Part shown: one piece after another, positions 14,051 to 37,560 of the stretch | Position numbering within the stretch: the stretch's first letter is position 1 | Layout: the number at the start of each line of letters is the position of its first letter | Assembly: GCA_033439255.1 (NCBI GenBank) | Contig: CM065885.1 | Location: forward strand, 1,178,001-1,242,000 | Length of the DNA stretch: 64,000 nucleotides | Direction: 5' to 3' | DNA from: Hericium rajendrae | Taxonomy: Eukaryota > Basidiomycota > Agaricomycetes > Russulales > Hericiaceae | Position numbers and translations under genes: made by a program | The notes under the pieces: model-generated | What the model was told of the DNA's origin: nothing | Databases searched by the model: none | Seen by the model: only the letters and a program-made list of their open reading frames with translations

Positions 14051-14099
14051 CCACATGAAACAGTCACTTAGTGCATTGAGGTAATGCCAGGCGAACCTG

Positions 14100-15690
14100 A
14101 CAAAGTGCCATTGTTGATTGGCCATCCTGCGCCGGCCCGTCGGTCACAATGTAGCAGTTACTCAATGACAGGCCTGCTCCCCTTATGTACCAATAAGTCA
14201 TTGTCTGGCCTCTGGTCATTTAATCTGTAGTGTCCATTTATCATTGACTGGCCTGGTTCACTATGTACCAATGGGTCATTGTCTGGCCCACTGGATGTGG
14301 TGGGAGGTCATTGGCTGGCCCGTACTCATGAAGTATCTACTATCCATTTCCCATTGACGGGCCTGTAGTATATACCAATGCATCATTGACGGGCCGGTCC
14401 TCTCACAATACCGCTGTACATTCATCATTGACTGGCCCGTCCTCCAACGTCCATTGGGTCATTGACCGGCCCATTCCATCCCGCGGGTTGTCAATTGCTC
14501 GGCCCGTCCTCCAACATCCATTGGGTCATTGGCCGGCCAGTCCTTCTATAATACCACTGTACATTCATCATTGACTGGCCCGTCCTCCAACGTCCATTGG
14601 GTCATTGGCTGGCCGGTCCTCTTACAATACCGCTGTACATTCATCATTGACTGGCCCGTCCTCCAACGTCCATTGGGTCATTGACCGGCCCATTCCATCC
14701 CGCGGGTTGTCAATTGCTCGGCCCGTCCTCCAACGTCCATTGGGTCATTGGCTGGCCGGTCCTCTTACAATACCGCTGTACATTCATCATTGACTGGCCC
14801 GTCCTCCAACGTCCATTGGGTCATTGGCTGGCCGGTCCTCTTACAATACCGCTGTACATTCATCATTGACTGGCCCGTCCTCCAACGTCCATTGGGTCAT
14901 TGGCTGGCCGGTCCTCTCACAATACCGCTGTACATTCATCATTCACCGGCCCGTCCTCCAACGTCCATTGGGTCATTGACCGGCCCATCCTCTCACAATT
15001 TCTACTATCAATTCCCCATTGACGGGCCTGCAGTATATACAAATGGGTCATTGATGGGCCCGTCCTCTTAGAATATACCATTGTACATTCATCATTGACC
15101 GGCCCACTCGATCCCGCGGCATCACAATTGCTCGGCCCGTCCTGTACCGTCCATCGGGTCATTGATGGGCCCGTCCTCTCACAATAACACTGTACATTGG
15201 GTCATTGGCCGGCCCGTCCTTTTACAATGTCTCCTGTACATTCATCATTGACGGGCCCGTCCTCCACCATCCAATGGGTCATTGGCTGGCCTGTCCTCCT
15301 ACAATTTTTACCGTTTATTCATCATTGACGGGCCCGTCCTCTACCGTCCATTGGATCATTAACGGGCCGGTTCTCTCACAATGTCTACTGTACATTCATC
15401 ATTCACCGGCCTGTCCTCTGACGTTCATTGGGTCATTGACAGGCCCATTCCATCCCGCGGGTTGTCAATTGCTCGGCCCGTCCTCCAACATCCATTGGGT
15501 CATTGGCCGGCCGGTCCTCTTACATACCGCTGTACATTCATCATTCACCGGCCCGTCCTCCAACGTCCATTGGATCATTGACCAGCCCATCCTCTCATAA
15601 CACCACTGTTCATTCATCATTCACCGGCCCGTCCTCCAACGTCCATTGGGTCATTGACAGGCCAGTTCTCTTATAATACCACAGTGCACG
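14100..15690 (+). repeat. Subterminal CATTG..GGCC motif array (left)
   Basis: Dozens of degenerate copies of TCATTG(A/G)C(C/T/G)GGCC on both strands, often in the frame of a unit of about 76 bases (clearest at 14,581-14,945) that includes GTCCTCCAACGTCCATTGGG and TACCGCTGTACATTCATC. Such arrays next to transposon ends are the usual place for transposase binding, so a binding role is a reasonable inference. Long plus-strand frames here (VHWVIDRPIP..., HSSLTGPSS...) are repeat read-through, not genes. Confidence 0.8.
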
Positions 15691-15834
15691 CTCGTTACTG
15701 GGGTGAAGGTGGGTGATACCGTGTTAATATATTCCATGAGATACAATGGAATTGCATGAATTTTGAAACCTAATGAGACAAGTGCGACATCATGGAAACA
15801 TAAATTAGAACGCAGCAGGCTGCTCCTGGTCCGT

Positions 15835-16050
15835 GGGTAAGGCAGGGACAACCCACCTGCCGCGGATGAGGCAGGGACAACCCACTTGCCGCCCACCTGC
15901 CAAGGCAAGGACAACCCCACCTGCCGCGGGTAAGGCAGGGACAGCCCACCTGCCGCGGGTAAGGCAGGGACAGCCCACCTGCCGCGGGTAAGGCAGGGAC
16001 AACCCCACCTGCCGCGGGTAAGGCAGGGACAACCCACCTCCCGCGGGTAA
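15835..16050 (+). repeat. 29-30 bp CCGCGG-bearing minisatellite (left, block 1)
   Basis: Seven to eight tandem units built on GCCGCGGGTAAGGCAGGGAC plus AACCCACCT. Related blocks lie at 16,245-16,400 and in brief at 16,655-16,700 on the left, and at 35,670-36,005 on the right in the opposite orientation. The unit contains the palindrome CCGCGG that is scattered over the whole element. Long frames on both strands ([15 protein letters not shown] and [10 protein letters not shown]) are read-through. Confidence 0.85.
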
Positions 16051-16114
16051 TCAGCCGCCGCCGGTGATTGACTCACAGGATATATCAGACAAGTGCGACA
16101 TGATGGAAACATAC

Positions 16115-16242
16115 GGGCTGACCGGAGTGGATCATGAAGCCGTCGGTGAACTTCATCGACTTGGCACGGGCAGCACAAAGCTTGCCGGAAACAACGACTT
16201 CGCAACCCTTGGCACCGGACTCCATAACGAAGCGGAGCACAC
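16115..16242 (-). pseudogene. RPS3: Captured ribosomal protein S3 (uS3) exon fragment, left arm
   Basis: The minus strand reads [20 protein letters not shown], then [20 protein letters not shown] and QP, followed at 16,114 by a GTATGT donor. Eukaryotic uS3 has YGVLRF(I/V)[15 protein letters not shown]...RAKSMKF.DG.MIHSG.PV at this place, so the match is close to full. The fragment starts abruptly at VLRF because minisatellite takes over. Only this exon is present and it cannot encode a working protein. Confidence 0.85.
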
Positions 16243-16244
16243 AG

Positions 16245-16400
16245 CACGGACAACCCCACCTGCCGTGGGTAAGGCAGGGACAACCCCACCTGCCGCGGGT
16301 AAGGCAGGGACAACCCACCTGCCGCGGGTAAGGCAGGGACAACCCACCTGCCGTGGGTAAGGCAGGGACAACCCACCTGCCGCGGGTAATCAGCCGCCGC
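16245..16400 (+). repeat. Same minisatellite (left, block 2)
   Basis: About five units directly next to the truncated RPS3 exon. It separates that exon from an inner copy of the spacer and the short coding-like tail at 16,471-16,562. It has no counterpart at the same place in the right arm. Confidence 0.8.
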
Positions 16401-16470
16401 CGGTGATTGATATATCCTGTGAGATACAATGGAATCTAATGAGACAAGTGCGACATGATGGAAACATAAA

Positions 16471-16562
16471 TTAGAACGCAGCAGGCTGCTCCTGGTAGGC
16501 AGCTGGCTGCTCAAATGCAGGGTCAGCCGCCTGGTACGCAGGCTCCTCAGCCGCCGCCGGTG
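16471..16562 (-). pseudogene. Coding-like tail, possibly a C-terminal exon of a captured ribosomal-protein gene
   Basis: The minus strand reads SPAAAEEPAYQAADPAFEQP, then AAYQEQPAAF and a stop (TAA at 16,471-16,473). It is preceded by a CACAG acceptor-like sequence and by the same spacer that follows the RPS3 exon. The Ala/Pro/Glu/Gln-rich end looks like the acidic tail of a fungal ribosomal protein, perhaps S3 itself. I cannot prove the origin from the sequence alone. Confidence 0.4.
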
Positions 16563-16704
16563 ATTGATATATCCTGTGAGATACAATGGAACCTAATGAG
16601 ACAAGTGCGACATGATGGAGACATAAATCAGAGTGCAGCAGGCTGCTCCTGGTCCGCCGGTAAGGCAAGGACAACCCCACCTGCCGTGGGTAAGGGGTGG
16701 GTGT

Positions 16705-16755
16705 AGGTTGGGGAGCTGGCCGTTACCGAGCACCTTGCTGAATGTGTGCTGCAGC
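16705..16755 (-). pseudogene. RPL28: Second short copy of the uL15 KVLG segment
   Basis: The minus strand repeats the FSKVLGNGQLPN-coding stretch, with small differences from the copy at 16,915-16,985. A local duplication inside the element is the simplest reading. Confidence 0.6.
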
Positions 16756-16914
16756 ACATCGAAAATTTAGATAATGTCATATCATGCATGGTGGGCTTCT
16801 TTGCCTCCAGAGCCACCCCATTCCGCGGGCCATAGGTTCCGCGGGCCATAGGGTTGGGGGGACAACCCAATTGCCGCGGGTAGGGGAAGGGTGATGTCTG
16901 GGTGGGTTCCAGGA

Positions 16915-17105
16915 AGATTGGGCAGCTGGCCGTTACCGAGTACCTTGCTGAACCCGTGTTGTAGCACACACCACACCAGGATGGTATTTATCGAAGTTGA
17001 TTCTGTGGTGCTGCAGACCACCAGCAACCCGAACCCCCTCCATGCTTGCCGACTCGTCCGTGACCGGCGGGGACAAGGCCACAGTGCTTGCAGGTCTTGG
17101 GACAA
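16915..17105 (-). pseudogene. RPL28: Captured ribosomal protein L28/L27a (uL15) fragment
   Basis: The minus strand contains KTCKHCGLVPAGHGRVGKH, a GGG-rich loop, then in another frame LQHHRINFDKYHPG and GFSKVLGNGQLPNLP. These line up in order with uL15: KTRKHRGHVSAGHGRVGKH, GGQHHHRTNFDKYHPG, and (further along in the intact protein) GY.KVLGKG.LP..P. The stretch between YHPG and the KVLG segment is missing, and the frame is not continuous, so this is a decayed piece. Several Arg codons have become Cys (CGN to TGN), as expected from deamination of methylated CpG. Confidence 0.75.
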
Positions 17106-17508
17106 ACGAGCCACCATTTGCTTTAGGATGTTTTCGTGATGTGCCGCGGCATCACAATTCCGTCCCTTTCCTCAGGCCGCCCGTTTCCGTGCATGTGCAG
17201 GGGCAGCGGCAAATGCACGATTCCCCCTGCATGCAGCAACCTCGCCCGTGTTCTTATCTACCAATCCCGGGGTATCTCGAACAAGGGCTGTTTCTGACCT
17301 TCATGATTGCCTTTACTCTTATGAGTCGACCCATAAGCCAAGGGTCATGCCCCAGTCTGGTACACTGCTAAGGACTCATTCATCATTTTCACAATTGGCT
17401 CTGGACTGCGATCATGCACAGCGTTTGGATCGGACAGTGTCTACTACCACCATTTCCTATGATGCTTGAATATTGTCCGTCACAGATCAGGATCCTACAG
17501 CACATTGA

Positions 17509-18645
17509 TTAATGATCCCAACGACGATCCTCGCGCCATGCAAAATACTGATCCTTCAAGTGCTCCAATGATTCCTCTACCTTCTGGTGGATGTCAATCA
17601 TGTCCTGAAACCTCTTGCTGCTTCGCGCCGCATTGTCCCTCTGGGAAGCCATCAAACTAATGGCGGACTGCATGATGACCGCTGCCGGGTGTCCAACTTC
17701 ACCGGTATTCAAAAATGGCTGGTCCAGGGGTGGGAGACTCCTCTCCAGATCTGTCTAGATGGAGAGTGAATGGTCAACCTTCAATCACATAAATCATAAT
17801 TTACCATCGTGGACAACGCGGCCTGTCGGGCCTCTGGATCCCCCTTGGGACCAATATTCGTGGTCCAGAAACCCTAAATGTCTATGAGACCCAATCATCA
17901 CATAGTCCATATTTTCTTACCGGTGCATTGGAGCCTTGGTCTACAGCCTTGCCCTTGCTGTTAGATGGCAACGGATTGCCGCGGCATGAAGATGAGCCCT
18001 GTGAGTCAGTGTTAAGACTGATTATGTAGTCTCAATAACGGCCCCTACTGCTGTGGTATTGCCACCCTTGACCTGAAGGACCTCCATCAGTAGGAGGGTC
18101 GTCATGATATCCAAACAACCACCTACCGCGGCTTCGCTGCCTGCTGGAGCAGTCTTCCGCTGTTGAAGAATTTTGGTGCCAGCATGATTGATGAATGCAG
18201 GAGACATACCTTTTTCTTTGGCCTGTCTTCATCAGAGTCCGGAATGATGATGACTTCTCTCTCCTGATCTGTTGGACGTAAGGGTCCCAGTTTGGAGGCA
18301 ATGAGCATCCCGCGGGATCTAGTCCTTGGTTGGCCTACCTATGGACATTGTGTTTGCCGCGGCATTCTGTGGGCCATTGGCGAGCAGCATGTCGAGTTCT
18401 TCCATCAAATCGACAGGCTCCTGGGCCTGGTTTTCATTTTTCGCAGGAGCCCACAACGTGTCCGGGGCATCCTCCAACATCGCCGCCCAATCGTCATCGT
18501 CTGGAGCATTCACCCTGCTCGCATTGCTGGTGTCCGGACCACGAGAAGGTGGCAAGTCGTCTACTGGCATGAAAGGAGACAGGGATTCTTCCTTCGGGAT
18601 GGTGTACAGCCCGTCGAAGAGAGAGAGATCAAAGTTGGAATTCAT
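17509..18645 (-). CDS. Transposon gene A: acidic/coiled-coil protein of unknown function
   Basis: Start ATG at 18645 (MNSNFDLSLFDGLYTIPKEE). The first exon encodes an acidic, disordered region with NAPDDDDWAAMLEDAPD and DLMEELDMLLANGP and ends near 18,347. The next exon carries EREVIIIPDSDEDRPKKK, a likely nuclear localisation signal, then RKTAPAGSEAA. After two or three more introns the last exon gives PPLDQPFLNTGEVGHPAAVI, MQSAISLMASQRDNAARSSK and FQDMIDIHQKVEESLEHLKD with stop at 17,509; this part is probably a coiled coil. It is transcribed away from gene B with 188 bases between the starts. No domain was recognised. Its place inside the element and its CCGCGG-containing introns suggest a transposon-encoded accessory protein. 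Confidence 0.6.
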
Positions 18646-18833
18646 CAACAAGTTGACCAGATTAGGTAGTTCGCGTGTTGACGTGGCGAGCCACGGATTA
18701 CCCGATCGAGATCACGTGATCAGCTGTCAGAGACGCGGCGCAAGTCAACACGACGCGGTGAACTCCGTCGCGTCTGATCTCTTCTGTCCACATCCACTCC
18801 CCATTGCTATCTGCTCAGTTTGCTCTCTTTACA
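18646..18833. promoter_or_regulatory. Divergent A/B promoter with an E-box palindrome
   Basis: 188 bases between the two start codons. It contains the perfect 12-base palindrome GATCACGTGATC (18,710-18,721), which includes the E-box CACGTG, directly followed by CAGCTG. A bHLH-type regulator could act here, but that is inference. Confidence 0.4.
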
Positions 18834-21800
18834 ATGTCCACTCCAGAACGCACTCTCACCCCCTTGCAGATCCAGCACGTCGTGCGGGTTGCATACGTGG
18901 CACAGGCCATCGCTTGTTACAAGCAACAGGACAACCCAGATGTGGCCGCTTGGACTGCCCTTCTGGAGAACCACGTTGTATGCTACCTTCAACTGATTTT
19001 TTACGACTACTTTCTTCTTACCGTGCGCACACCGACAGCGTGAGGTACATGCCGGCATGAAAAAGATCATGATTGCCGGTGATCATTGTGGCCTCTCGGC
19101 CTTGTTTCTCAGCTATGTGGCCGAAAGCCAAAAAGCCAAGGAACAAAATCGTCCCATCCGCATCTGTGATGTCTACGAAGATGATCCGCGTATTGAGCCG
19201 CGCAAGGCTTGGGTTCGTATTTGGGCCACGATGGAAGAGGCGGCGGGTCCCGCGGGGCAGCCGGATGGCTCAGGTATCTGGTGGGCACACTTAGGTATTT
19301 TTCATTCCAGCATATTTCTTTTGTTTTCAACATTTTCTGATATCCCTTCTGCCCCACAAGCAGCGCCCCACCATCCACCTGGCCCTGTGGTAGACAGGCC
19401 TGTGGTCCCCACCGGTGCCCAAGCCCCCACAGCAACCCCGCCTCCAGCAACGGCGAGGCCTCCTGAGAGCACAAATGCACCCGCGGCACCCGCGGCATCC
19501 TCGGCACCCACAGCACCTGCAGCACCCGCGACACCTGCAGCACCTGCGGCACCCGCGGAACCCGCGGAACCCGCGGAAACCGTGTCACCCTCGGCACCCG
19601 CTGGGCGCACGACACGCGGGATACCTCCAGCCCGGACGACACCCGCGGCACCCGTGGCACCCGCAGCACCGGCACCCGCAGCACCCGCGACACCTGCAGC
19701 ACCTGCGGCACCCGCGGCACCCGCGGAAACCGTGTCACCCTCGGCACCCGCTGGGCGCACGACACGCGGGATACCTCCAGCCCGGACGACACCCGCGGCA
19801 CCCGTGGCACCCGCAGCACCCGCGGCACCCGCGGCACCCGCAGCACCCGCGACACCTGCAGCACCTGCGGCACCCGCGGCACCCGCGGAAACCGCGGCAC
19901 CCACCGCACGCCGGGGACGCCCTGCACGCACCACCCCCGCACCACGCACAGCACTGGATCCCGCCCCACCGCGCCGTCAGCCCAAAACGCGGAAGAAGCT
20001 GGATTTCGTGGAACTCGACACCCGGCAGAGCCGCAAGCATGCGAATTCGGACGAGGAGACCAACACGATGATGGAGCAGGGCCGGAAGCGTGCCCGCAGC
20101 AAGCCCACCCAGTCGACCAAGAAGGATGAGGTGAACGCTGGACCTAGTGGCCAGGGGACCTCTCGGCCGAAGAAGAGGGTGTACAAGACGCCGGCCCTCG
20201 TTCCCACTGAGGACGAGGAGGAGGATGAGGAGCCCATGCCGGCTAAGAAAGTAAGCTGCAGCCACAACTATTTTGTGCCGTGCACTGATCCCGCGGGTTC
20301 CAGACACGCAGAAGCAAGCCGCCTGCCACAATAGACGAAGATATGGCTGAGGGCGAGGAGAACGAGCATGAAGACAAGGTCCGGAATGAAGAGGAGCACC
20401 AGGACGAGGAGGACGAGGATGCCGCCGCCACCGAGGATGACGACGATGATGACGACGATGAGCCTTTGGCCAAGGTGATGCCCCACCTTCAAAGATGATT
20501 GCACTGCTGACCATAACATCTGCTGTGCAGCGTCAAAGGGTAAAGGGCCCTACTAGCCAGGCAGCAGAGCCCGAATTACCATCAAGCAAGGTAAGTACCT
20601 CTCGATGCCTTGAGGTGTAGACACCAATGCCGCGGAATCTAGAAGGGCAAGAACACAAAGCGGGTAGCATCGCCTGACAATCAGGGTGATGCTCCTCCCA
20701 CCAAGGTACTTAGTATTTCAAATATCAGGATGACACAAATTGACTTGGTCCACCATTTACAGAAGCAGAAAGGTAAGCAGGCAGCAAAGCCTGTTGAAAC
20801 AGAGGCGGAGATCCCCATCGTAAATGTGAGTGGCATTGTTGCATTGTTGACCAGGACTGATCCTGTCATGAACAGAAGGACAAAGGGAAGCAGCGTGCAT
20901 CACCACAAGAGACAGTGCAGAAGGTGCTTCGGAGTAAGGTGAGCAATGATCATTGCTGACCGTTGTTTGCACACACTCAGCCCTTATCCCGCGGCATATC
21001 ACAGGCCCCTCCCGCGGATCCTGCTCAGAAGGTAGTGGAAAGTCATACTCTAAAAGTCTTGCGAGGCTGATATTAGGAGTAGCAGAATGAGGTCAAGGAC
21101 AAGACAAAGCGGTACAGCGACAGCCAGCTGAACGAGGCTGAACTCCGGTTCCGACTGGCTGCCAAAGCAGTGAAGGTACATCCCTTCGCTGTTTCCATTC
21201 CACGACACTGACCAGTGTTGCCAGCTGAGTCCTTGTGGGAACTGTATTGCGCACGGCAAAAAGGAACTGTGCTCCTACCCAGGAGTGGGGTCTGCCTGCC
21301 TCCTGTGCACCGCCGGCAAGAAGAAGTGCTCCCTCCGACCCTGTGGTGTCACAAGTGGGGGGTGGTCAACTACACCACACCCGAGCTCTGGGATGTCCTC
21401 ATTCGTCATGGTCAAGGCCCTCTTCCACCCCTTCCTCCTGGGTTCGAGCACCTGCCGCCGCCTCCCAACCACATGCCGGCTGGCGTGGCATCCGCTGCTT
21501 CGCAAGATCCCGCGGCATCGACGTCCTCGGCTCCCGCGGGATCCCAACCCGTGGTATCTCGCACAGAGTACGATGGCCTTGTCTCCCGAATGGAGCACCT
21601 CATCATGGAGGTTCGCACCCAAGGCGGTGTTATCGAGCAGCTCCGCGGGATGGAGCCAAAGTTTGCGAAGCTGACGTATGACATTGACGACCACAAGACC
21701 GCGATGGCCACGAGATTCGAGGACATCGATGCCCGCATGGACTGCATCAACACGGCCCACTTCAACGACATGGAGCGCATGGAGCACCGGATGGCGGACG

Positions 21801-22294
21801 TAGAGGGGAAGTCAAAGACGATCGACCCCGCGGTTCTCGAGGAAGTGGGAAACCACTTCCAGAAGACAATGCAGGATGGCCAAAGCCAGCTCAAGCAGGA
21901 CCTGCTGGAGTCTTACCGCGAGATGCTGCAGAACGACTTGGGTCGCATGAGGGAGGAGGTAGCCGCGGAACGGGCTGCAGGAGGTGAAATGCGAGCTGAA
22001 CTCGCTAGACTGACTGCTACTCATGCGGAGAGGCTCCCTCAGTCCACATCAGATGGCGGTCAGCTCCCAACTATAGCGGCCTCTCCAGCTCCGAACAAGG
22101 CATTGACCCTCGGCTTCGGGTGGGCTTCCCGTCAGTCATTGACGCCCTGTCCGTCTGGCAGTGGTGCCGCGGGTGGTGGTCAGAGTCCGGCCTCCCAGGA
22201 GTCCAACGGTGCCGCTGGTGCCGCGGGTTCCCACTCCCCCCGGGACTTGCAGGAAAGTGCCAATGAGGACTCTGCAGGTGCCGGGCATGCGTAA
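18834..22294 (+). CDS. Transposon gene B: Ala/Pro-repeat, cysteine-cluster and coiled-coil protein
   Basis: Exon 1 (18834-18977) begins MSTPERTLTPLQIQHVVRVA. Exon 2 (19039-19294) encodes REVHAGMKKIMIAGDHCGLS...WVRIWATMEEAAG. Exon 3 from 19361 holds a long (A/T)PA repeat in which a block with RTTRGIPPARTTPAAP is duplicated, then basic and acidic tracts. A chain of short exons follows, each ending in Lys at an intron (KGKNTKRVASPDNQGDAPPTK-like). Next is a cysteine cluster CGNCIAHGKKELC...ACLLCTAGKKKC, which resembles fungal zinc-knuckle clusters. The C terminus (LVSRMEHLIMEVRTQGGVIE, FEDIDARMDCINTAHFND) is a coiled coil ending at 22,294. Between the cluster and the coiled coil (about 21,330-21,360) the frame changes without a plausible intron, so one frameshift is likely. 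A nuclear DNA-binding role is inferred. Confidence 0.65.
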
Positions 22295-22615
22295 TTGACA
22301 CCTGCTTTCCACTCGCATCTAATTGTTTTGTTCTGCATATCACTCGATTGTCGGTTTACGTGTCTATTTACGATATCATCATCTTGAATTAATCGTGATC
22401 TTTGAATTAATCATGGTCTTTGAATCAATCATGGTCTTGATGCTCTGCAAACAGAACTGACATATATTGAGATGGGAGGTAAGGTAACAATCGTTTCAGG
22501 GAGTCATGAATGTCCAGTAATTTCGTATGGAAGCCTCTATGCAGTGTTGAAACCACACCAGTATCTGTTCCCGTGGAGTTGAAACCGCGGGATATCACCA
22601 TGGTCGGTGCCCATA

Positions 22616-27303: not shown

Positions 27304-28640
27304 ATGTCACCTCTCCTGCCCATCCCTTATTCCAGAGCGGTTGCATGCCCATACGAGGTTGAAATGGCAGACTATCTTTCTGCCCGCTTTGCAAATGTTC
27401 TGGCACAGAGGGGAGCCGCGGGATCGAGCATTAGCGATGTACGAAGGCCTGCAATACTACCTCTCCATGTCCTGATCGAGTTGGACTTCATTGCCCACAA
27501 ACTGGCAGATGCCGCGGAAACCAGAGGTATGTTTACGGCATCGTACCGCGGCATCTGATTGACGTGCTTGGCAGTACAAGTACATTGGGACATGGCTCGC
27601 TACGCAGAGCGGAGGAGGACTGAGGACACCCCTGCATTCTTGAAGCGCTATCCGCCTCTATCTGACCGCCCAGTGCAGACCAATCCTTGCGTCGGGGTCG
27701 ATATCGGGGAACAGGCCTTCTTGTGGTACTTGCCTGACTTGTTGTCAGAGGAGCGTGAAGTATGCCTAGTTTCAGTTGCGATATGCAATATTTTTATGAT
27801 TTTCACATGCAGAGGAAGATGCTAGAGGCTACAGAGCACCTCAATGAACACTTCAAAGTCGCTACCAGCGCCAGCCAGGCAACATGGCGTGAGTATGCTG
27901 GGCTCTTCATTGATCCCGCGGCAACCCATCGCTTCTCACCTGGCACGGTCACCCTCTCTCCAGGATGGTTTGCACAGGGTCATGATGTATGTGCAGTGGA
28001 TATATGCGTATACGTAGGCTACGTTCTGACGTATGTACAGATGCCAGGTGATGATTGGACGGTGTCAGCAAATTTGAACCCAAAACGTCGCAACAAAATG
28101 ACAGCGAAACCATTCAAATGGCTCCGAGATATTGCGGAATCTGCGGCTCTTATCAGTGCAATTCTAGCAGTGGTCAACCCAGACCTTTACCGTGCCGCGG
28201 CTTCCGTGATTGGCGTACAGAGGGAAGACGAACACTTGGCTTCAGTTGCACATCGATGGAGTTCGGTATTCAACGGAGTCTCCATCATATCAAATCGCAT
28301 CACCCCATCACACAGAGATAGCCAAGGCCTGACTGGAGGCTACGACATCTTGTGTACCATAGGAGACTACTCCGGGGCCCGATTCAACCTTCCTGGTTTG
28401 AATTGGACCCTGAACTACCCCAGGCGCACAGTCATAGCCGTGGCAGGGAAGTCCCTGAACCATGCTGTGGGCCCATTCCGCGGAGAGCGTATCTGCTATG
28501 CGTGGTTTTTGAGAGACAACGTTCACGAACGGGCAAAGGTTATTTCTCCAGGCTGGATGAACCTGCGGGAGTATTCGGATTTATTGCCGCAGGATAGAGA
28601 TGGTCTAGCTGATGAAGATGGTGATAATTGCCATCGATAA
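27304..28640 (+). CDS. Transposon gene D: TET/JBP-family 2-oxoglutarate/Fe(II) dioxygenase
   Basis: Predicted to oxidise 5-methylcytosine (or another pyrimidine) in DNA, using iron and 2-oxoglutarate. Four exons join in frame (27304-27526, 27575-27759, 27813-27986, 28041-28640) into 393 residues; introns have GTATGT/GTATGC donors. The catalytic double-stranded beta-helix is in the last exon: NRITPSHRDSQG supplies His285 and Asp287 (HxD iron ligands), YDILCTIGDYSGARFNLPGL forms the core strands, and LNHAVGPFRGERICYAWFLR supplies the distal His335 and the 2-oxoglutarate-binding Arg344, followed by DNVHER. This matches fungal KDZ-linked TET/JBP proteins (NR.TP.HRD.QG...GDY...H....G.R.C.A...RDNVH). 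All key residues are present and the frame is open, so it looks functional. The transposase gene starts 92 bases downstream. Confidence 0.88.
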
Positions 28641-28732
28641 GAGTTACGAATACCATCGATCAAATTTACACATGTTCTCGTCGAGCAGGTTTGCTGTGTT
28701 CTTGTATTCTACAGTCATCTTCACCCAATCTC

Positions 28733-31700
28733 ATGGTAACCAGAAAGAGTACTACCAGGGTTCGTCGCAAGGAATTTGGCAATCCAAGTCAACCCGCTCG
28801 AGTGGCACTAGTGCTCAAGGAGACGTCCCGCGGATATCGCCAAGTTGCGATTCCAATCCGTAATGTGAATCCCAGCAACCCGGCCCGCCGGGCCAGGAGC
28901 ACACCACTGCGCGGCGCATCCGGTCAGCAATCTGGAGAGGGCCCGAAAGAGGACACCATACCGGATGTGGATCCCGATCGTGTACCCCTTGCAAATACAT
29001 TAAGGAAGGTAAGTATTGAATTGGCATCGAGTCACGTAGTGCGGCGGCATGACTGGCTTTACAATAGGGCCAGCATGACTTCCTACGGGAATGGCTTGAT
29101 GAGCGTCAGGATTATCTCCATATCCTGTTGGAGCATGAATGTCGGCCTGCGGATGGCAAGTGCATCTCATGCAAGGAGCGCCCAGGTCTGTGGAAATGTG
29201 GAGATTGTGTGGGCCGACCCTTTGAATGCACGGCATGCTGCGCACGGCGCCATCTGGCACTTCCACTCCATCGCGTTGAAAAGTGGACTGGCGAATTTTT
29301 TGCACCTTCATGGCTGCGTCTAGCTGGTGTTCGGGTCCACCTTGGTCACGGTGGAGAAGCATGTCCACATGCCGCGGGAAGCTGGAAGGGAGATGGAGTC
29401 CGGGTTGAGGATGAGGACGATGATGCGGAGGATGATCAGACGAACCAGAGTAACGAAGACAACACACTGCACTTCCAGACAGATTCAGTCCGCAAGCAGG
29501 ACATGGATAATGAAGGCAATCCCATTCTCTGCTTGATCGATTCGAACGGAGTCCATCAGCTGCCAGTCGTATGGTGTCAGTGTCCAGATGCAGAGGCACC
29601 AGCAAAGCAGCTGTTTCGGATGGGCTTCTTCCCAGCCTCCTTCAATGCACCACAATCTGCATTCACGTTTCATGTTTTGGATGACTTCCGACTGGATAAT
29701 TTAGAATGCAAGACCACAGCCTGGCATTTCTATGCGAAACTGCGTCGGCTCACGAGCAGTGCATTTCCGGCCAGTGTACCGGTGAGATACATACTTTCTT
29801 GTAATCAGAGGGAAATTTCTTTGATCAGATATTCCTCCAGAATCGGTACAGAGAGCTTCTCAGAGTAGAAAGAGAATGGCGCGATATGAAGTTGAGAAAA
29901 TGGTTTGGGGCTGGCCATACGGACTTGGACAAGCCAGATGCCGCGGGTGCATTTGCGCTGTTTTGTGCAGCATGCCCTCAGCCAGGGTTCAACTTGCCGG
30001 ACAATTGGAAGGAATTAGATCCACGGAAGTAAGCTGCATGTCACCTCAAGAATATTCCTCTCAGATTCATACCTCGTCAGGTGGATTTTCTTAAGAACAT
30101 TTGTCATGGATGGCAATTTTGACTCGACTGGGGTGAAGATGCGAAAGCCAGAGAATGATGTCCAGCTCAGTGATGGCACCGGATTCATGGTGGGAAGGAA
30201 AGAGTATCAGGAACATCTTAAAGTTGCTTTGGAGGTCACCAAGGTAGGGTGGTTCAGCATTGCCGCGGGTCAAGGTTGCTTGACCATGTTTTAGCGCTCC
30301 ACCTGCAATGAGCACCGCGCTGTAAACCGTGTCAACTCGGATCGTCACAACATTGAAAACACCGGAATCGGTGCTACCGCCTGTGGCCATGGTGCTTACT
30401 ATCCCCATTCTGTTGTTGACTTTCAAAAAGGCGAAAGGTGCGTCCCGCGGGTTCCATATCGCTATCCCGCAGCATGGCTCATGCACCCCCTCAACCAGAC
30501 AAATGAACATGGACTACTCCATGCCAGGCCATCAACCACAATACTGAAGGGATAGAAATCATCTTGAAATACTATGACGTCATTTGTCAATGGTGGAAGC
30601 ATTTCGATGAGCGAGTAGAGAGAAGTCCATATCTCAACCTTCCAACGAGTTTGAAGGAAATGAAGAAGGCGATTGGGCTGTTCCATGTCCACGGACACAA
30701 GGATACTTGCATCCCGTCGTTCTCACCAAACTACATCATTGGAGCCAGACAGTTTGATGGGGAAGTCGTCGAAACACTCTGGGCACCACTGAACGAGATT
30801 TCTCGCAGTACGTCTGGTATGACGACTTCTCATCGCCGAGAGGTCCTGGACGACCATATGAATGACTCAAATTGGAAAAAGATGACAGGGATGGGTGGGT
30901 TCATTCACTCCCGAGCAATAATCATTGATCCTGATCATGGTGCACAGTATCGTACCTTACCCGCAAGTATAAAGAGGGCAAAGCAGGCATTGCGGAGGCA
31001 CGTCTTGGGTTCGAAAATATCGACGCAACAGTCGGGGCTGAGAATAGGGACACGTGGCTCAAAGCAGAGCAGCGTGCGCAGGATAAGCGCAGCGATAAGC
31101 CTGAAGTCATGGTCCCGATATATGACACAGTAATCAAAACAGGTGCGCGTAACCTGGTACGACGTGTTCCCGCGGCAAGGGGTTGATTTCCGCGGGATAC
31201 ACAGCCCCTTCAAGAGCAGAGATCCTATCCAAATTGAATGAGCGAGAGCGAAAGAAGGAAAAGGGGCAAGGTGCCGCGGCATGGATTACTCTAGGACTTC
31301 GCATTCAGGAAACTCAGTAAGTCTTGCCAAAGAATGCCTTATTCATTCAGCATTTCATTCTTTTAATGGAACTGGCAGGCTATCTATCCTAGCACATCTG
31401 CGCAAGTTGGGAAAAAACCTTACCGCGGAGCAGAAAAATGATCTAGCAGACCGCAGACGTCGTCTCCAGGCCAGGGTTTCGACATTTGAGAGGGCGGCAG
31501 GCGACTATCTCCCACAGGATACAGATGTCACAGGTGGTGGCATCCCATTGTCTGAAAATGAAGGGGAAGACTTCGACCTTGTAGGTGAAGATGGCGAGGA
31601 TATCGAGCAGCCGGAACAGCAACATGCTCCAGGGAATGCTGCAGCAGACGGCACAAATGTGTATGTCCCAGTGGAGAGGGTCGCCCTGTCAATCCCATCC

Positions 31701-32467
31701 TGCCTGGACGACGAGTTGCGCGCGTTGCCGGAGATGCGCTCGCTTGTTGCCAAGGAGGCCGAGTTGAGGGAGGGCCAAGCAAATGATGCGTTGCAGAGCC
31801 TTCGTCTAGCATTGGGACATAAGGCGTTTGTTTTCAGACATGACGTCCGCAATGCTGGCAGTCAACGCGGCAAAACCCGAGCCTGGGCAGATGTCATGTC
31901 CATCGAAAACACAGTACAACAGCAGGCCCGCATATATCGGAAGGCAAGAGAGGCATTAGTTACATTGAAAGTCAAGTCGTCGGTCCTGAAACGACTTCAG
32001 CTGCTGGAGAGGGCACAGCTCAAGGTCCATACCGCGGTATTGGATCCCGCGGCAAGGGGGCTGCGGAATGCAAATCTGCCATGGTTCTGGAGTGTAGATG
32101 TGAAAGGGGACTCCGCTGAGGCTACATGGCTGGCAGATTGTGAGCCAAAATCATTCTTGCATGTCCGATTGTTCATCCTTGTCTTACAGTCCATCGTGTC
32201 CAATGGCTCCGCGCCCGTGCTCGGTTGCATCGCTGGGAGGAGCAAATGGTAGTGCTTCCATTTGAAATGGAGTGGACTGTCCGCGGGTTCAGGACACGTG
32301 GAGCAGCCTGGAATGCTAGGAAGATATGGGCTGACAGGAAGGGGAAACTGGGTCACTTGGCATATGCAGCCCGTCAGAGTGCAATGTGGGCAGAATTCGC
32401 AACCACCGCAGAAGCTGCATTTGCTCTTGCTAGAGGCGACGATCCTCTATCGCAGTTTGGCATGTAA
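28733..32467 (+). CDS. Transposon gene E: KDZ transposase with CxC2 cysteine cluster
   Basis: DDE-type transposase of the Kyakuja-Dileera-Zisupton superfamily. Ten exons: 28733-29008, 29068-29781, 29829-30028, 30081-30243, 30295-30437, 30499-30894, 30948-31142, 31205-31316, 31379-32139, 32190-32467; about 1,079 residues. Residues ~117-163 form the CxC2-like cluster (CRPADGKCISCKERPGLWKC, CTACCARRH, PLHRVEKW). Then come RYRELLRVEREWRDMK, AACPQPGFNLPDNW, FVMDGNFDSTGVKMRKPEND (first catalytic Asp likely in MDGNF), TACGHGAYYPHSVVDFQKGE, YYDVICQWWKHFDERV, AIGLFHVHGHKDTC and DGEVVETLWAPLNEISRSTS (Glu likely in ETLWAPLN). The end is FHRVQWLRARARLHRWEEQM. The summed exon length is one base over a multiple of three: just after QMNMDYS, near 30,521, the frame must change to read CQAINHNTEGIE. 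One frameshift is therefore present, so this copy may depend on a transposase made elsewhere. Confidence 0.9.
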
Positions 32468-32596
32468 TATATTCAGGTTATTGAGTTCGAGTCGGGTCCA
32501 AATCAATGCATACATTTGTCCTAAGGCAGTAGTTATGTCTTTGATGCGATTCCGCGGCATTAAATCCCACGGCAGCATATCCTACCGTATGGTACC

Positions 32597-32663
32597 ACGT
32601 CCCGCGGCACTGTATCCCATGTCCCGCGGCACTGTATCCCATGCCCCGCGGCACTGTATCCCA
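32597..32663 (+). repeat. Tandem CCGCGGCACTGTATCCCATG repeat (3 units)
   Basis: Three near-perfect 22-base units, each centred on CCGCGG, in the short convergent gap between genes E and F. A fourth CCGCGG lies just upstream at about 32,552. Confidence 0.85.
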
Positions 32664-32676
32664 CTGCCTATCATAT

Positions 32677-33690
32677 TCACTTGTCACATATATCCCCAGA
32701 GCTGCCCGCCATGTTTTCGATACCATGATACGCTTTGCTTATGTTGGCCCATTTGAGCAGGGCCCCCATCTCCATTGCCATCTGATCGTCTTCACCCTGC
32801 CTTGATTTCAGACCGGTTATCATGTTCTTGGTCAGGGTAATTGCACTGTCGATGTTCTGCACCATGGGGTCATTGCGTCGAATCTGTATGAATACAGAAG
32901 TAAGTAGAGTCCAGCAGCATTGGTCGTGGCTCACCTCTGTCACAGCCAGTTGGATGGCGACGATGAGATGGTCCAGAACGTTTGGCGGTATCGAGACCCC
33001 TCCCTTTCGGAAAGCCTTATCCAGTGCTGTTGCCTGGGTATTCACTTGCTTCTTTGAAAGCCACTCCCCCCCACGTTCCATCCACCACAATGGCATGTAA
33101 ATTCTGGTCAGGGTAGTCTTACCCCTTTGAAAGGGTATATGAGACACAGAAACAGGGGTCTTATGGGCCTCGTATGCCTTGGTGCATATGTGGAATGTGT
33201 TGTACGCATTCCTTAAATAGTCGTGGACTAGGAGGGGTTCGCAGTGGAAGGCTGCCCACCCGATGATGAAACCCGCGGCATCCTAGTCGGGTTCAGCATC
33301 AATCAGAATCCAATCAGATCAATCACCACTTGCCAATTCTGCCTTTATGCCGGCATAGATCTGATCCTTCATAATATCATAATCTGGGTAATCCACCTTG
33401 TCTTTCAGCCATAGGATGGCATCACGAATGCGCCAAGCAGACTCGTTGAGGAGCTGTTGTGCGAGGCAATGCGGAGGTGCTTGGGGAAAGTCCGTGTCTT
33501 CTGGATTTAGGGGAGGGGGTCCATCCCACTCCTCCTCATCATATCCATATTCGTCTAGGGTCGGCCAGCTACTGTCTACACTACTGATTAGCAATGCCAG
33601 GATCTCGACAATTCCGCACACACCTGAGCCGCGGGTTTGGTCCGTCAATGGATTGATATCCTGGTCTGAACCGTCGTTGCTAGGATGGCT
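32677..33690 (-). CDS. Transposon gene F: orphan protein
   Basis: Minus strand. A likely start is MQSHPSNDGSDQDINPLTDQ near 33,694. A following exon is acidic (WPTLDEYGYDEEEWDGPPPL) and then helical (LAQQLLNESAWRIRDAILWL, YPDYDIMKDQIYAGIKAELA). The next exon reads DAAGFIIGWAAFHCEPLLVH, DYLRNAYNTFHICTKAYEAH, KTTLTRIYMPLWWMERGGEW. After an intron (GTGAGC...ACAG) the last exon reads IRRNDPMVQNIDSAITLTKN, MITGLKSRQGEDDQ and ends DICDK at 32,677. The junction near 33,600 is uncertain. No domain was recognised. It converges with the transposase (210 bases apart) and lies downstream of gene G on the same strand. Confidence 0.55.
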
Positions 33691-33851
33691 CTGCATTTGG
33701 CTTGTTTTCCAGCGAACTTGGTCAAATAGAACGAGATGACAGAGGGTGCGGAAGTGTGGACAAAATACCGAAAGGGGCATTGATCAGATCATCGGACTGT
33801 GGAATACTACTGCCAGATTTGGATAACGCTTTAGGCTAAAGAACAAAAGGT

Positions 33852-34656
33852 CTATGAATTTGTGCGTCCGTCTGTATCATTGCCATCGGTGACGTCCTCT
33901 GCATTGGCACCACGTGTACTATGATTACCCTTCATCGCCGCCCCTATTTCGCTATTCCACTGCTTCACCTTGGTATCCTCGGCAGCCAACGCCCTCTGCA
34001 GCATACCGCGCGCTTCCTGTTGGGCTGTTTCTGACTCGTTCAAAGCCTCCAAAAAACTTTTGTTTGTTTCCTCGAAAAGATCTGCAGGAGGTGCAGAGCC
34101 AGGTACAGTATAGTAACCATTCTAGATATTTGGTAGATTTGAGAATTTAGTGTGTATGATCTGGCAAGAAACATTTCAACTCACTCTCGAGAAGAGGGCG
34201 GCGTTATACCGCGGGAGTGTATCGGTCAATGGTGGCATGCCGTGGGTGAGTCCTGGGCTAACAATGCCGCGGGATGTGTGCGCACGAGCTGCACGAGCAG
34301 TCATGGTTGAGGTGGATTCAGGAATGAGAGGATGCCATGAACGATCCATATCTTCTATGAAGCGATGATAAATAGATTGTTGGACTTCATCGGAACATTG
34401 GATGCTATCATGGCTCAGTTGAACCAAGCCAAAATCTCTGGCAAGTACTACCTAAAACGATGGTGATAGTGTGATTAGCACATTGACATGGCTTTGCGAA
34501 GATGGATTGCTGTACCCATTGCTTCACATTCAGGTTAGTGTCACCGACTTCCGATGCCTGTAGTGCAGCAAGAGACTTTTCCACCCGACGTTTTCGTTCC
34601 TGTATATCGCGGGTGCGGAACTCTTCAAGGGGGTCTGGTGAGGGACTCGTTGACAT
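33852..34656 (-). CDS. Transposon gene G: orphan helical protein
   Basis: Start ATG at 34656. Exon 1 reads MSTSPSPDPLEEFRTRDIQE, RKRRVEKSLAALQASEVGDT. Exon 2 reads VVLARDFGLVQLSHDSIQCS, DEVQQSIYHRFIEDMDRSWH, PLIPESTSTMTARAARAHTS. Exon 3 starts NGYYTVPGSAPPADLFEETN and continues SFLEALNESETAQQEARGML, TKVKQWNSEIGAAMKGNHST, ending GRTNS at 33,852. Introns have GTGAAG/GTGAGT donors and TTAG/CTAG acceptors. The protein is about 200 residues, mostly helical, with likely short coiled coils at both ends. No family was recognised. It lies tandem with gene F and just inside the CCGCGG satellite at 34.9 kb. Confidence 0.55.
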
Positions 34657-34861
34657 ATGGAAAGTGATGGATGGAGATGAAGTGTAGACCTCGCCGCGAA
34701 ACCGTACCACATGACAATTCAGGCACGTGCGCGATACCAGTTGTGATTGTTAAAGTTAGTGTTTTATGCAATGCGCACATGTGCGGGTATATGTTATATA
34801 CCATACGGCTGGTTTATATTTTGAATGACTAATTTTGTCTGCAGTGAAACCCCCCACTGTG

Positions 34862-34978
34862 ATTGATCCCGCGGCATCACGCTGCAATTGATCCCGCGGC
34901 ATCACGCTGTAATTGATCCCGCGGCATCACGCTGTAATTGATCCCGCGGCATCACGCTGTAATTGATCCCGCGGCATC
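34862..34978 (+). repeat. Tandem 25-bp satellite centred on GATCCCGCGGCATCACGC (5 units)
   Basis: Five units of ATTGATCCCGCGGCATCACG plus CTGTA repeat almost without change. Each contains the extended palindrome seen elsewhere in the element as single copies. The array sits between gene G and the inner patch of subterminal motifs. Confidence 0.9.
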
Positions 34979-34984
34979 AAGTGG

Positions 34985-35360
34985 GCCTGCCAATGACCCA
35001 ATGGTACGTAAGGGGACTGCCCGGTGAATGAAGAATGTACACTAAATTTTTAGAGGACAGTGTGACCAATGACTCAAATGTCATGATGAGGCGAGCTGGT
35101 GATGACCCAATGGATGTCAGAGGATGGACCGGTGAATGATGAATATACAGTGGTATTGTAAGAGGACCGGCCGGCCAATGACCCAATGACCAGTAGAAAT
35201 TGTTAAGAGGATGGTCCCATTAATGACCCAATGGACGGTAGGGGACCAGCCGAGCAACTGAAAACCGGCGGGATCGAATGGGCCAGCCAATGATCCATTG
35301 GACATAAGAGGATGGGCCGGTCAATGATGAATGAACCGTGGTATTATAAGAGAACCGGCG
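34985..35360 (-). repeat. Inner patch of CATTG..GGCC motifs
   Basis: About eight motif copies (GCCAATGACCCAATGG and variants) lie inward of the right arm with more divergence than in the arm itself. They look like an older, displaced piece of the subterminal array, separated from it by the ribosomal-protein fragment and minisatellite. Confidence 0.65.
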
Positions 35361-35377
35361 TGTGGGGGTATATGTTA

Positions 35378-35601
35378 TACAAGCTCATTAGTGGCCTCGC
35401 CATCCGTCGGTGCGTGCTTCAATCGATTTGGGTGTTGTGTTCAGCATCTGAGCCTCTTGCAGTGCATGCTACGGTGTGCTCCGCTTCGTTATGGAGTCCG
35501 GTGCCAAGGGTTGCGAAGTCGTTGTTTCCGGCAAGCTTTGTGCTGCCCGTGCCAAGTCGATGAAGTTCACCGACGGCTTCATGATCCACTCCGGTCAGCC
35601 C
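35378..35601 (+). pseudogene. RPS3: Captured ribosomal protein S3 (uS3) two-exon fragment, right arm
   Basis: The exon end YKLISGLAIR (35,378-35,409) is followed by a 53-base intron (GTGCGT...TTGCAG, 35,410-35,462). The next exon, 35,463-35,601, encodes [40 protein letters not shown] and MIHSGQP, and ends at a GTATGT donor. Splicing in silico gives [10 protein letters not shown], as in uS3 of other eukaryotes ([19 protein letters not shown]). The retained intron shows that genomic DNA, not a processed transcript, was captured. Within the uS3 segment a C stands where most species have R (KLCAARAK versus KLRGQRAK). Confidence 0.88.
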
Positions 35602-35669
35602 GTATGTTTCCATCATGTCGCACTTGTCTGATATATCCTGTGAGTCAATCACCGGCGGCGGCTGATTAC

Positions 35670-36005
35670 CCGCGGGAGGTGGGCTGTCCCTGCCTTACCC
35701 GCGGCAGGTGGGGTTGTCCCTGCCTTACCCGCGGCAGGTGGGGTTGTCCCTGCCTTACCCGCGGCAGGTGGGCTGTCCCTGCCTTACCCGCGGCAGGTGG
35801 GGTTGTCCCTGCCTTACCCGCGGCAGGTGGGGTTGTCCCTGCCTTACCCACGGCAAGTGGGTTGTCCCTGCCTTACCCGCGGCAGGTGGGCTGTCCCTGC
35901 CTTACCCGCGGCAGGTGGGGTTGTCCTTGCCTTGGCAGGTGGGCGGCAAGTGGGTTGTCCCTGCCTTATCCGCGGCAGGTGGGTTGTCCCTGCCTTACCC
36001 ACGGA
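35670..36005 (-). repeat. Same minisatellite (right block)
   Basis: About eleven units in the opposite orientation (TACCCGCGGCAGGTGGG and variants). The array is longer than block 1 of the left arm, so unit number is variable between the arms. Confidence 0.85.
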
Positions 36006-36149
36006 CCAGGAGCAGCCTGCTGCGTTCTAATTTATGTTTCCATGATGTCGCACTTGTCTCATTAGGTTCCAAAATTCATGCAATTCCATTGTATCTCATG
36101 GAATATATTAACACGGTATCACCCACCTTCACCCCAGTAACGAGCGTGC

Positions 36150-37560
36150 ACTGTGGTATTATAAGAGAACTGGCCGGCCAATGACCCAATGGATGTTGGA
36201 GGACGGGCCGAGCAATTGACAACCCGCGGGATGGAATGGGCCTGTCAATGACCCAATGGACGTTGGAGGACGGGCCAGTGAATGATGAATGTACAGCGGT
36301 ATTGTAAGAGGACCGGCCGGCCAATGACCCAATGGATGTTGGAGGACGGGCCGAGCAATTGACAACCCGCGGGATGGAATGGGCCTGTCAATGACCCAAT
36401 GGACGTTGGAGGACGGGCCGGTGAATGATGAATGTACAGCGGTATTGTAAGAGGACCGGCCGGCCAATGACCCAATGGATGTTGGAGGACGGGCCGAGCA
36501 ATTGACAACCCGCGGGATGGAATGGGCCTGTCAATGACCCAATGAACGTCAGAGGACAGGCCGGTGAATGATGAATGTACAGTAGACATTGTGAGAGAAC
36601 CGGCCCGTTAATGATCCAATGGACGGTAGAGGACGGGCCCGTCAATGATGAATAAACGGTAAAAATTGTAGGAGGACAGGCCAGCCAATGACCCATTGGA
36701 TGGTGGAGGACGGGCCCGTCAATGATGAATGTACAGGAGACATTGTAAAAGGACGGGCCGGCCAATGACCCAATGTACAGTGTTATTGTGAGAGGACGGG
36801 CCCGTCAATGACCCGATGGACGGTACAGGACGGGCCGAGCAATTGTGATGCCGCGGGATCGAGTGGGCCGGTCAATGATGAATGTACAATGGTATATTCT
36901 AAGAGGACGGGCCCATCAATGACCCATTTGTATATACTGCAGGCCCGTCAATGGGGAATTGATAGTAGAAATTGTGAGAGGATGGGCCGGTCAATGACCC
37001 AATGGACGTTGGAGGACGGGCCGGTGAATGATGAATGTACAGCGGTATTGTGAGAGGACCGGCCAGCCAATGACCCAATGGACGTTGGAGGACGGGCCAG
37101 TCAATGATGAATGTACAGCGGTATTATAGAAGGACTGGCCGGCCAATGACCCAATGGACGTTGGAGGACGGGCCGAGCAATTGACAACCCGCGGGATGGA
37201 ATGGGCCGGTCAATGACCCAATGGACGTTGGAGGACGGGCCAGTCAATGATGAATGTACAGCGGTATTGTAAGAGGACCGGCCAGCCAATGATGCATTGG
37301 TATATACTACAGGCCCGTCAATGGGAAATGGATAGTAGATACTTCATGAGTACGGGCCAGCCAATGACCTCCCACCACATCCAGTGGGCCAGACAATGAC
37401 CCATTGGTACATAGTGAACCAGGCCAGTCAATGATAAATGGACACTACAGATTAAATGACCAGAGGCCAGACAATGACTTATTGGTACATAAGGGGAGCA
37501 GGCCTGTCATTGAGTAACTGCTACATTGTGACCGACGGGCCGGCGCGGGATGACCATTCA
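36150..37560 (-). repeat. Subterminal CATTG..GGCC motif array (right)
   Basis: Complement of the left array. A longer unit of about 150 bases, containing GAGCAATTGACAACCCGCGG, is repeated three times at 36,178-36,540. This amplification is different from the one in the left arm, so the arrays have expanded independently. Confidence 0.8.

What the first reader, a model, noticed from the sequence alone, without database searches (positions are those of the whole stretch)
14478..37190. About 100 copies of the CpG palindrome CCGCGG saturate the element, including its exons and introns
CCGCGG, often within GAT(C/G)CCGCGG(C/G)ATC, occurs about once per 220 bases inside the element but about once per 4-5 kb in the orphan-gene DNA to the left. 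It is found in unrelated contexts: many short introns hold one or two copies, exons hold it as DPAA or AAG codons, and the minisatellite, the 22-bp and 25-bp satellites and the terminal arms contain it. Selection seems to have placed one short DNA word everywhere regardless of coding. An element encoding a TET/JBP enzyme has an obvious use for regularly spaced CpG sites: marking, protecting or reading its own DNA. A binding site for the cysteine-cluster protein of gene B is the main alternative.
Basis: seen in the sequence. Interest (0 to 1): 0.95.

Follow-up and report, generated by a model that had tools for sequence, protein, structure and literature searches.

The report
Palindrome-saturated TET-carrying fungal transposon
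A large fungal jumping gene that carries a DNA-demethylase-type enzyme is peppered, in its genes as well as between them, with one exact palindromic DNA word that looks like a landing site for a protein, perhaps its own way to find and un-silence its DNA.

Summary
CCGCGG occurs 106 times in 22.9 kb (about 6 expected), the most enriched of 2080 6-mer classes under order-1 and order-2 nulls. Repeat spread is only half of it: 52 copies lie outside tandem arrays (3.7 expected), with unrelated flanks. The fuller site is a dyad, about ATS-CCGCGG-SAT. Density is the same in exon-like and other DNA (2.67 and 2.79 per kb). With protein and codon usage fixed, exon-like pieces hold 23 copies where about 4 are expected, again rank 1 of 2080. 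Zero-spaced CCG/CGG half-sites dominate, and 7 of 9 kinds of tandem array carry the word. This is DNA-level selection for what looks like a protein-binding site. CpG as such is depleted (0.75), so extra TET substrate is a poor reason. Best reading: an element-encoded dimeric protein coats the element and brings its TET/JBP enzyme there, a fungal parallel of plant VANC anti-silencing, but with sites inside exons. The binder and the TET link are inferred; no related element was found to compare.

The parts
14061..37614 (.). The element as bounded by its inverted arms; termini CAGTCACTTAG...CTAAGTGACTG (CA..TG)
   Evidence: self-blastn of arms, reading of both ends; the 7 bases on either side, CATGAAA and AACATAC, do not match, so no target-site duplication was seen
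14061..15682 (+). left arm with repeats of about 76/143/219 bp, 4 CCGCGG
36155..37614 (-). right arm, inverted copy, 5 CCGCGG
   Evidence: 94.2% identity of 14713-15680 with 37248-36298; count
15831..16389 (+). 29-bp minisatellite, left copies (arrays 15831-16050 and 16244-16389), 9 CCGCGG
35666..36004 (-). 29-bp minisatellite, right inverted copy, 9 CCGCGG
16821..16852 (.). 16-bp tandem pair, 2 CCGCGG
19477..19902 (.). 9-bp array (about 48 units), 14 CCGCGG, inside an open frame rich in Ala and Pro
25124..25183 (.). 15-bp array, 3 CCGCGG, inside the minus-strand open frame 24175-25497
32595..32663 (.). 22-bp array, 3 CCGCGG
34857..34979 (.). 25-bp array, 5 CCGCGG
16874..34272. 52 dispersed CCGCGG sites outside tandem arrays (positions listed)
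27759..28640 (+). TET/JBP oxygenase open frame; sites at 27916, 28195, 28478
   Evidence: Pfam Tet_JBP E 8.9e-23; CcTet of Coprinopsis (PDB 7vpn) E 1.6e-22; sites
29068..29868 (+). CxC2 cysteine-cluster part of the transposase; site at 29372
   Evidence: Pfam CxC2 E 2.8e-26
30507..31133 (+). KDZ transposase core; no site in it
   Evidence: Pfam KDZ E 6.9e-24
31280..32252 (+). open frame after the KDZ core, taken as its C-terminal part; sites at 31423, 32032, 32047
   Evidence: no Pfam match above cut-off
21216..21365 (+). cysteine cluster of gene B (C-x2-C-x8-C-x8-C-x2-C-x6-C with a KKK run), candidate DNA-binding part
   Evidence: sequence; Pfam Zn_clus only E 2, DUF3716 only E 0.17, both below cut-off; model pLDDT 59.6
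21362..22291 (+). gene B long frame with predicted helices of 84 and 69 residues (coiled-coil-like); 7 sites
   Evidence: lies in another frame than the cysteine cluster, the join is not established

Best explanation
CCGCGG (about ATS-CCGCGG-SAT) is the recognition site of a sequence-specific, probably dimeric DNA-binding protein made by the element. Selection has built and kept sites throughout the element, by base substitution in unique sequence including exons, and by amplifying site-bearing units as tandem repeats. The dense sites mark the element's DNA as self: the bound protein, best candidate gene B (cysteine cluster plus long coiled coil), brings the element's TET/JBP dioxygenase along the whole element to undo host 5-methylcytosine silencing. 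Shown here: enrichment, DNA-level selection in coding sequence, dyad structure, fixed half-site spacing, array amplification, presence of a TET/JBP domain. Inferred: that the binder is element-encoded, which protein it is, and that it acts with TET.
For: 106 copies against 5.7 expected; 52 outside arrays against 3.7. Synonymous-codon shuffles of 11 exon-like pieces: 23 seen, mean 4.0, largest of 1000 shuffles 11; on 10 of these pieces, rank 1 of 2080 6-mers; host-flank control of 6 long open frames: 14 seen, 8.0 expected, rank 85. In the four TET, CxC2 and KDZ pieces alone 7 seen against 0.76. Same density in exon-like (20 in 7,501 bp) and other sequence (32 in 11,471 bp), p = 1.0. Frames used: 3, 16 and 4 sites in frames 0, 1 and 2. 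Half-sites: everted CCG-N0-CGG 52 against 3.7, no convergent CGG-Nk-CCG above z 2.2 for k 0-17. T at -2 in 0.71 of half-sites at the word, 0 to 0.44 at 15 comparison words. Seven of nine kinds of tandem array carry it, P about 9e-8 at body density. Longest site-free stretch 911 bp, P 0.004. The word is the everted CGG repeat bound by the yeast zinc-cluster dimers Pdr1/Pdr3 (PMC3091778, passages). Gene B has a 6-Cys cluster and two long helices at pLDDT about 70-85. Precedent: VANC21 binds YAGTATTAY, dense and in tandem repeats in its own transposon, and causes methylation loss (PMC5735166, abstract and three sections).
Against: No binding or methylation data. The gene B cluster is not a recognised zinc cluster (Zn_clus E 2, cut-off not met), its model is of low confidence, and cluster and coiled coil lie in different frames. 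VANC motifs lie mainly in noncoding DNA, these do not avoid exons. Kojima (PMC12730594, section 4.2) argues from oxidised methylcytosine also found on retrotransposons in Coprinopsis and Laccaria that AG-type TETs act without target specificity. Two of nine kinds of array, the KDZ core and the cysteine-cluster piece have no site; three pieces of 11 (33319-33783, 26381-26866, 32677-33282) are not individually significant (P 0.43, 0.19, 0.07) and CxC2 is marginal (0.05). Five of the pieces have no family match, so their coding status is assumed.
Confidence: 0.45

Rival explanations
1. The KDZ transposase itself (through its CxC2 or other zinc-binding part) binds CCGCGG; sites serve transposition, for example synapsis of ends and choice of own DNA, as with subterminal transposase sites, and any anti-silencing is a by-product.
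For: The arms and the minisatellites beside them carry 27 of the 106 copies; the transposase has a CxC2 cysteine cluster. MURA and TnpA show that transposon-encoded proteins with roles in transposition can also lower methylation (PMC10398659, passage).
Against: Transposase sites are expected near the ends, but the interior has the word at even density for over 17 kb, exons included. The outermost 420 bp of each arm have none (14061-14480, 37195-37614; positions).
Confidence: 0.2
2. CCGCGG is a modification site: the CpGs are methylated and oxidised by TET as an epigenetic mark that the element or host reads.
For: The word holds two symmetric CpGs in an element with a TET/JBP gene. CCGTGG variants in 5 of 20 units of the 29-bp repeat and 4 of 20 site CpGs differing between arms are what methylated CpGs would give.
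Against: Selection is on an exact hexamer with AT flanks, not on CpG: CpG o/e is 0.75, and CGCGCG, GCGCGC and GGCGCC have 2 copies each in the element. CcTet-type enzymes are not known to me to need this hexamer (recalled).
Confidence: 0.15
3. A host factor binds CCGCGG (a zinc-cluster activator, a remodeller or an insulator protein) and the element exploits it to stay open or transcribed.
For: CCGCGG is a known fungal zinc-cluster target (PMC3091778, passages).
Against: Host activators need few sites near promoters; here there are more than 100, in exons and at no preferred place. Flanking DNA is near background.
Confidence: 0.13
4. Not selection but composition, repeat spread, or insertion of a small mobile word.
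For: About half of the copies lie in tandem arrays; order-4 expectation reproduces the count.
Against: 52 copies outside arrays, flanks no more alike than random places (best pair 56% of 50 bases; mean of maxima in 200 random sets 51%). Rank 1 with amino acids and codon usage fixed. Two of the three TET sites align to CcTet without an indel. Single-base neighbours are near expectation, apart from CGGCGG (17 against 7.4) and CCGTGG (16 against 10.0).
Confidence: 0.05

Closest known systems
VANC/VANDAL sequence-specific anti-silencing (Arabidopsis VANDAL21, motif YAGTATTAY; PMC5735166)
   Same: One short exact word at high density in one transposon, rare outside; often amplified as tandem repeats; the transposon carries a factor that can lower DNA methylation.
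   Different: Here a palindrome, at equal density in exons and elsewhere; the candidate effector is a TET/JBP dioxygenase; the binder is not identified; superfamily KDZ, not Mutator-like.
TET-positive KDZ transposons of Agaricomycetes (Kyakuja, Zisupton; PMC12730594)
   Same: KDZ transposase and TET/JBP gene together; CA..TG ends as in Kyakuja.
   Different: Long inverted arms, whereas the two Laccaria Kyakuja families are described without TIRs; no 7-bp duplication seen; a saturating word is not mentioned in the parts of that paper I read.
Pleiotropic drug response element CCGCGG of yeast Pdr1/Pdr3 (PMC3091778, passages)
   Same: Same zero-spaced everted CGG core.
   Different: A few promoter sites for a host activator, against more than 100 sites along a transposon; preferred flanks here are AT-S; the element's cysteine cluster is not a recognised zinc cluster.
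Maize En/Spm TnpA (PMC10398659, passage; site details recalled)
   Same: Transposon-encoded protein whose activity correlates with demethylation of its element.
   Different: TnpA sites are subterminal (recalled), not throughout the element.

Membership tests
KDZ (Kyakuja-Dileera-Zisupton) DNA transposon with TET/JBP | KDZ transposase domain | tested here: met
   PF18758 E 6.9e-24, 85.2 bits, cut-off 26.6
KDZ (Kyakuja-Dileera-Zisupton) DNA transposon with TET/JBP | TET/JBP oxygenase domain in the element | tested here: met
   PF12851 E 8.9e-23; CcTet 7vpn E 1.6e-22 with HRD and downstream H retained in the alignment
Kyakuja (as described for Laccaria bicolor) | CA..TG termini | tested here: met
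   CAGTCAC..GTGACTG (definition)
Kyakuja (as described for Laccaria bicolor) | 7-bp target-site duplication | tested here: not met
   CATGAAA against AACATAC; a lost or recombined end is possible
Kyakuja (as described for Laccaria bicolor) | no terminal inverted repeats | tested here: not met
   long inverted arms
Kyakuja, Dileera or Zisupton | place in the transposase tree | not tested
   no fungal transposases at hand; the lineage is left open
VANC-like sequence-specific anti-silencing | short word dense in the element, rare outside | tested here: met
   for the flanks only; the rest of the genome is not held
VANC-like sequence-specific anti-silencing | word amplified in tandem repeats | tested here: met
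   7 of 9 kinds of array
VANC-like sequence-specific anti-silencing | word mainly in noncoding DNA | tested here: not met
   equal density in exon-like pieces
VANC-like sequence-specific anti-silencing | element protein binds the word and methylation is lost | not testable with these tools
   needs EMSA, ChIP, methylation data
VANC-like sequence-specific anti-silencing | related elements have their own word | tested here: inconclusive
   no relative found in viral contigs, genome contigs or plasmids; no fungal collection available
Zn(II)2Cys6 binuclear cluster protein (gene B) | match to the zinc-cluster model | tested here: not met
   PF00172 E 2, 9 bits against cut-off 21; none in the PDB sequences with E up to 10
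Zn(II)2Cys6 binuclear cluster protein (gene B) | coiled-coil dimerisation region | tested here: inconclusive
   long helices predicted from a single sequence, but in another frame than the cluster

The most novel reading that the evidence does not exclude
A eukaryotic transposon has rewritten its whole body, exons included, with the binding site of its own protein, so that a captured TET/JBP dioxygenase is steered along its full length and nowhere else: a self-addressed DNA demethylation system whose address is written into the protein-coding sequence.
Probability: 0.3. Interest if true: 0.93.

Novelty: new variant of a known kind. Interest (0 to 1): 0.74.

Why it matters
What transposon-borne TET/JBP genes do is an open question; Kojima (PMC12730594, section 4.2) leaves it between targeted and untargeted oxidation. 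A self-address word makes this testable: find the binder, see whether TET follows it, and see whether methylation of this family alone changes. It would also give a second, independently evolved case of sequence-specific anti-silencing outside plants, and a compact palindromic address for an epigenome-editing module.

Tried and rejected
Rejected: compositional GC or CpG signal; spread as copies of a longer sequence; a helical-phase signal (vector strength 0.11-0.13 for 57 points, no signal); other half-site spacings as a second motif: CCG-N1-CGG is raised (14 against 3.4, z 6.3), but 3 of the 14 are one repeated sequence of the left arm region and others lie beside the arms (list); direct CGG pairs at N0 (17 against 7.3) and N3 (14 against 6.9) are mildly raised and unexplained.

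Protection from decay: I asked whether sites decay like other CpGs. In the body, if site CpGs had been lost like CpGs in general, 45 to 62 single-hit products would be expected beside 52 intact sites (it assumes a host-like CpG content at the start), while the excess of CCGTGG and CCGCAG over background is about 4 (25 against 20.8). That fits selective upkeep. In the arrays and arms the opposite is seen: CCGTGG in 5 of 20 units, site CpGs differ at 4 of 20 places against 7 of 70 for other CpGs (small numbers, shared descent). So I do not claim that the sites are chemically protected.

Led nowhere: structure of the cysteine cluster (pLDDT 59.6), so no fold search was made; Pfam on the unknown open frames of the element; searches for related elements. 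Paper searches for the word in KDZ or TET transposons listed nothing on it; only listings were seen for most papers.
Full report
What was checked. CCGCGG was counted in the window: 133 copies, 24.2 expected in dinucleotide shuffles, largest of 100 shuffles 36. In the element (14383-37292, 22,910 bp) there are 106, one per 216 bp, against 5.7 (order 1) or 7.4 (order 2); it ranks first of 2080 6-mer classes under both, second at order 3, and 470th at order 4, where its own sub-words set the expectation. The left flank has 3 in 14.4 kb (2.7 expected), the right flank 24 in 26.7 kb (17.1 expected).

Not just repeats. Tandem arrays hold 54 copies, and 52 lie outside them. In that array-free body the word still ranks first at orders 1, 2 and 3 (52 against 3.7, 4.0 and 18.1). 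The flanks of the 52 sites are no more alike than those of random places. Of nine kinds of array, seven carry the word (arms, 29, 16, 9, 15, 22 and 25 bp) and two do not (12 and 18 bp); at body density the chance of seven or more is about 9e-8 (unit lengths were taken by me, 143 bp for the arms).

The site. Aligned on the core, both sides prefer A at -3 (53%), T at -2 (71%) and C or G at -1 (79%). T at -2 is on at least one side in 48 of 52 sites and on both in 26; it is commoner on the left (43) than on the right (31) (Fisher p 0.016). Fifteen comparison words show T at -2 in 0 to 0.44 of half-sites. Everted CCG and CGG at zero spacing stand out (z 25); the next is one-base spacing (z 6), partly from arm-region repeats. 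Single-base neighbours are near expectation except CGGCGG and CCGTGG. This is how a site for a protein dimer looks. The same core is the target of the yeast zinc-cluster dimers Pdr1 and Pdr3 (PMC3091778, passages).

Selection on DNA in coding sequence. I took 11 stop-free exon-like pieces: TET, CxC2, KDZ core, the frame after the KDZ core, two of gene B, and five on the minus strand without family match. Synonymous codons were shuffled within each piece. 23 sites were seen, 4.0 expected, at most 11 in 1000 shuffles. Three of the 23 lie in the 15-bp array. On ten of the pieces (7,560 bp) the word ranks first of 2080 (23 against 3.6); in six long open frames of the right flank, some of them overlapping on opposite strands, it ranks 85th (14 against 8.0). 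The four TET, CxC2 and KDZ pieces give 7 against 0.76. Outside arrays the density is 2.67 per kb in exon-like pieces and 2.79 elsewhere. Two of three TET sites align to CcTet without an indel, the third at a two-residue insertion, so most of these were made by substitution.

Spacing. From 16390 to 35665, with each array counted as one point, 57 points have a CV of 0.76 (random 0.97, P 0.02) and a longest gap of 911 bp (P 0.004). This is coverage rather than strict regularity.

CpG. The body has CpG o/e 0.75 (0.70 without the sites), the flanks 1.09 and 1.12; 104 of 983 body CpGs lie in the word. The element has thus lost CpGs in general, as methylated DNA does, and kept this word. In the arrays the word does decay to CCGTGG (5 of 20 units), and between the arms its CpGs differ at 4 of 20 places against 7 of 70 for other CpGs. 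Site CpGs are therefore probably methylated at times, and upkeep is by selection rather than chemical shielding.

The element. TET/JBP (close to CcTet), CxC2 and KDZ transposase domains lie on the plus strand. The arms are inverted and end in CA..TG at 14061 and 37614 with no duplication beside them. Gene B has a six-cysteine cluster with a KKK run (21216-21365) and, in another frame, a long piece with two predicted helices of 84 and 69 residues. Pfam gives no accepted match for the cluster (Zn_clus E 2, DUF3716 E 0.17). It is the best candidate binder by architecture only.

Mechanism. I favour self-addressing: an element-encoded dimer binds the word all over the element and brings TET to it. 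The nearest precedent is VANC21, which binds YAGTATTAY at high density, often in tandem repeats, in its own transposon, and induces loss of methylation (PMC5735166, abstract and sections 8, 9 and 11). Differences: here exons carry the word as densely as the rest, and the element brings its own oxidase. Why exons too? VANC's effects spread beyond its binding regions (PMC10398659, passages); if a tethered TET acts only locally, sites would be needed everywhere (inference). Against: oxidised methylcytosine on retrotransposons in two mushrooms led Kojima to suggest untargeted action (PMC12730594, section 4.2).

Limits. One element, no genome, no relatives, no binding or modification data. The host was not identified; the KDZ-TET pairing, a CPL1-like protein beside the element and the CcTet match suggest a basidiomycete. 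Most papers were seen as listings only; those cited were read in the parts named.

Noticed in passing
14061-16389 and 35666-37614: Long inverted arms (parts 94-95% identical) made of nested 76/143/219-bp repeats plus a 29-bp minisatellite; unusual beside the Laccaria Kyakuja families, described without TIRs.
   Followed up: partly
14054-14060 and 37615-37621: No target-site duplication (CATGAAA, AACATAC), and flanks of different GC content (0.50 left, 0.59 right): possible recombination between copies.
   Followed up: partly
21350-21365: The gene B cysteine cluster and its coiled-coil frame are in different frames across a run of six G; intron or frameshift not resolved.
   Followed up: partly
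23637-25497, 26381-26866, 32677-33783 (minus strand): Further open frames of the element without an accepted Pfam match, all with CCGCGG.
   Followed up: partly
19477-19902: A 9-bp array encodes an Ala/Pro-rich stretch and holds 14 CCGCGG copies, so array growth adds sites inside a reading frame.
   Followed up: partly
15831-16389 and 35666-36004: In the 29-bp repeat the core varies at one position only, C4 to T (CCGTGG, 5 of 20 units), a CpG-transition signature.
   Followed up: yes
16874-34272: T at -2 is commoner on the left (43 of 52) than on the right (31 of 52) of the palindrome; unexplained.
   Followed up: no
39160-40074 and 47617-48801 (minus strand): Right flank: CPL1-like protein (E 3.3e-14) and a C2H2 zinc-finger protein.
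   Followed up: no
6075-6968, 9744-10799, 10906-11571: Left-flank open frames without Pfam match at E 0.01.
   Followed up: no
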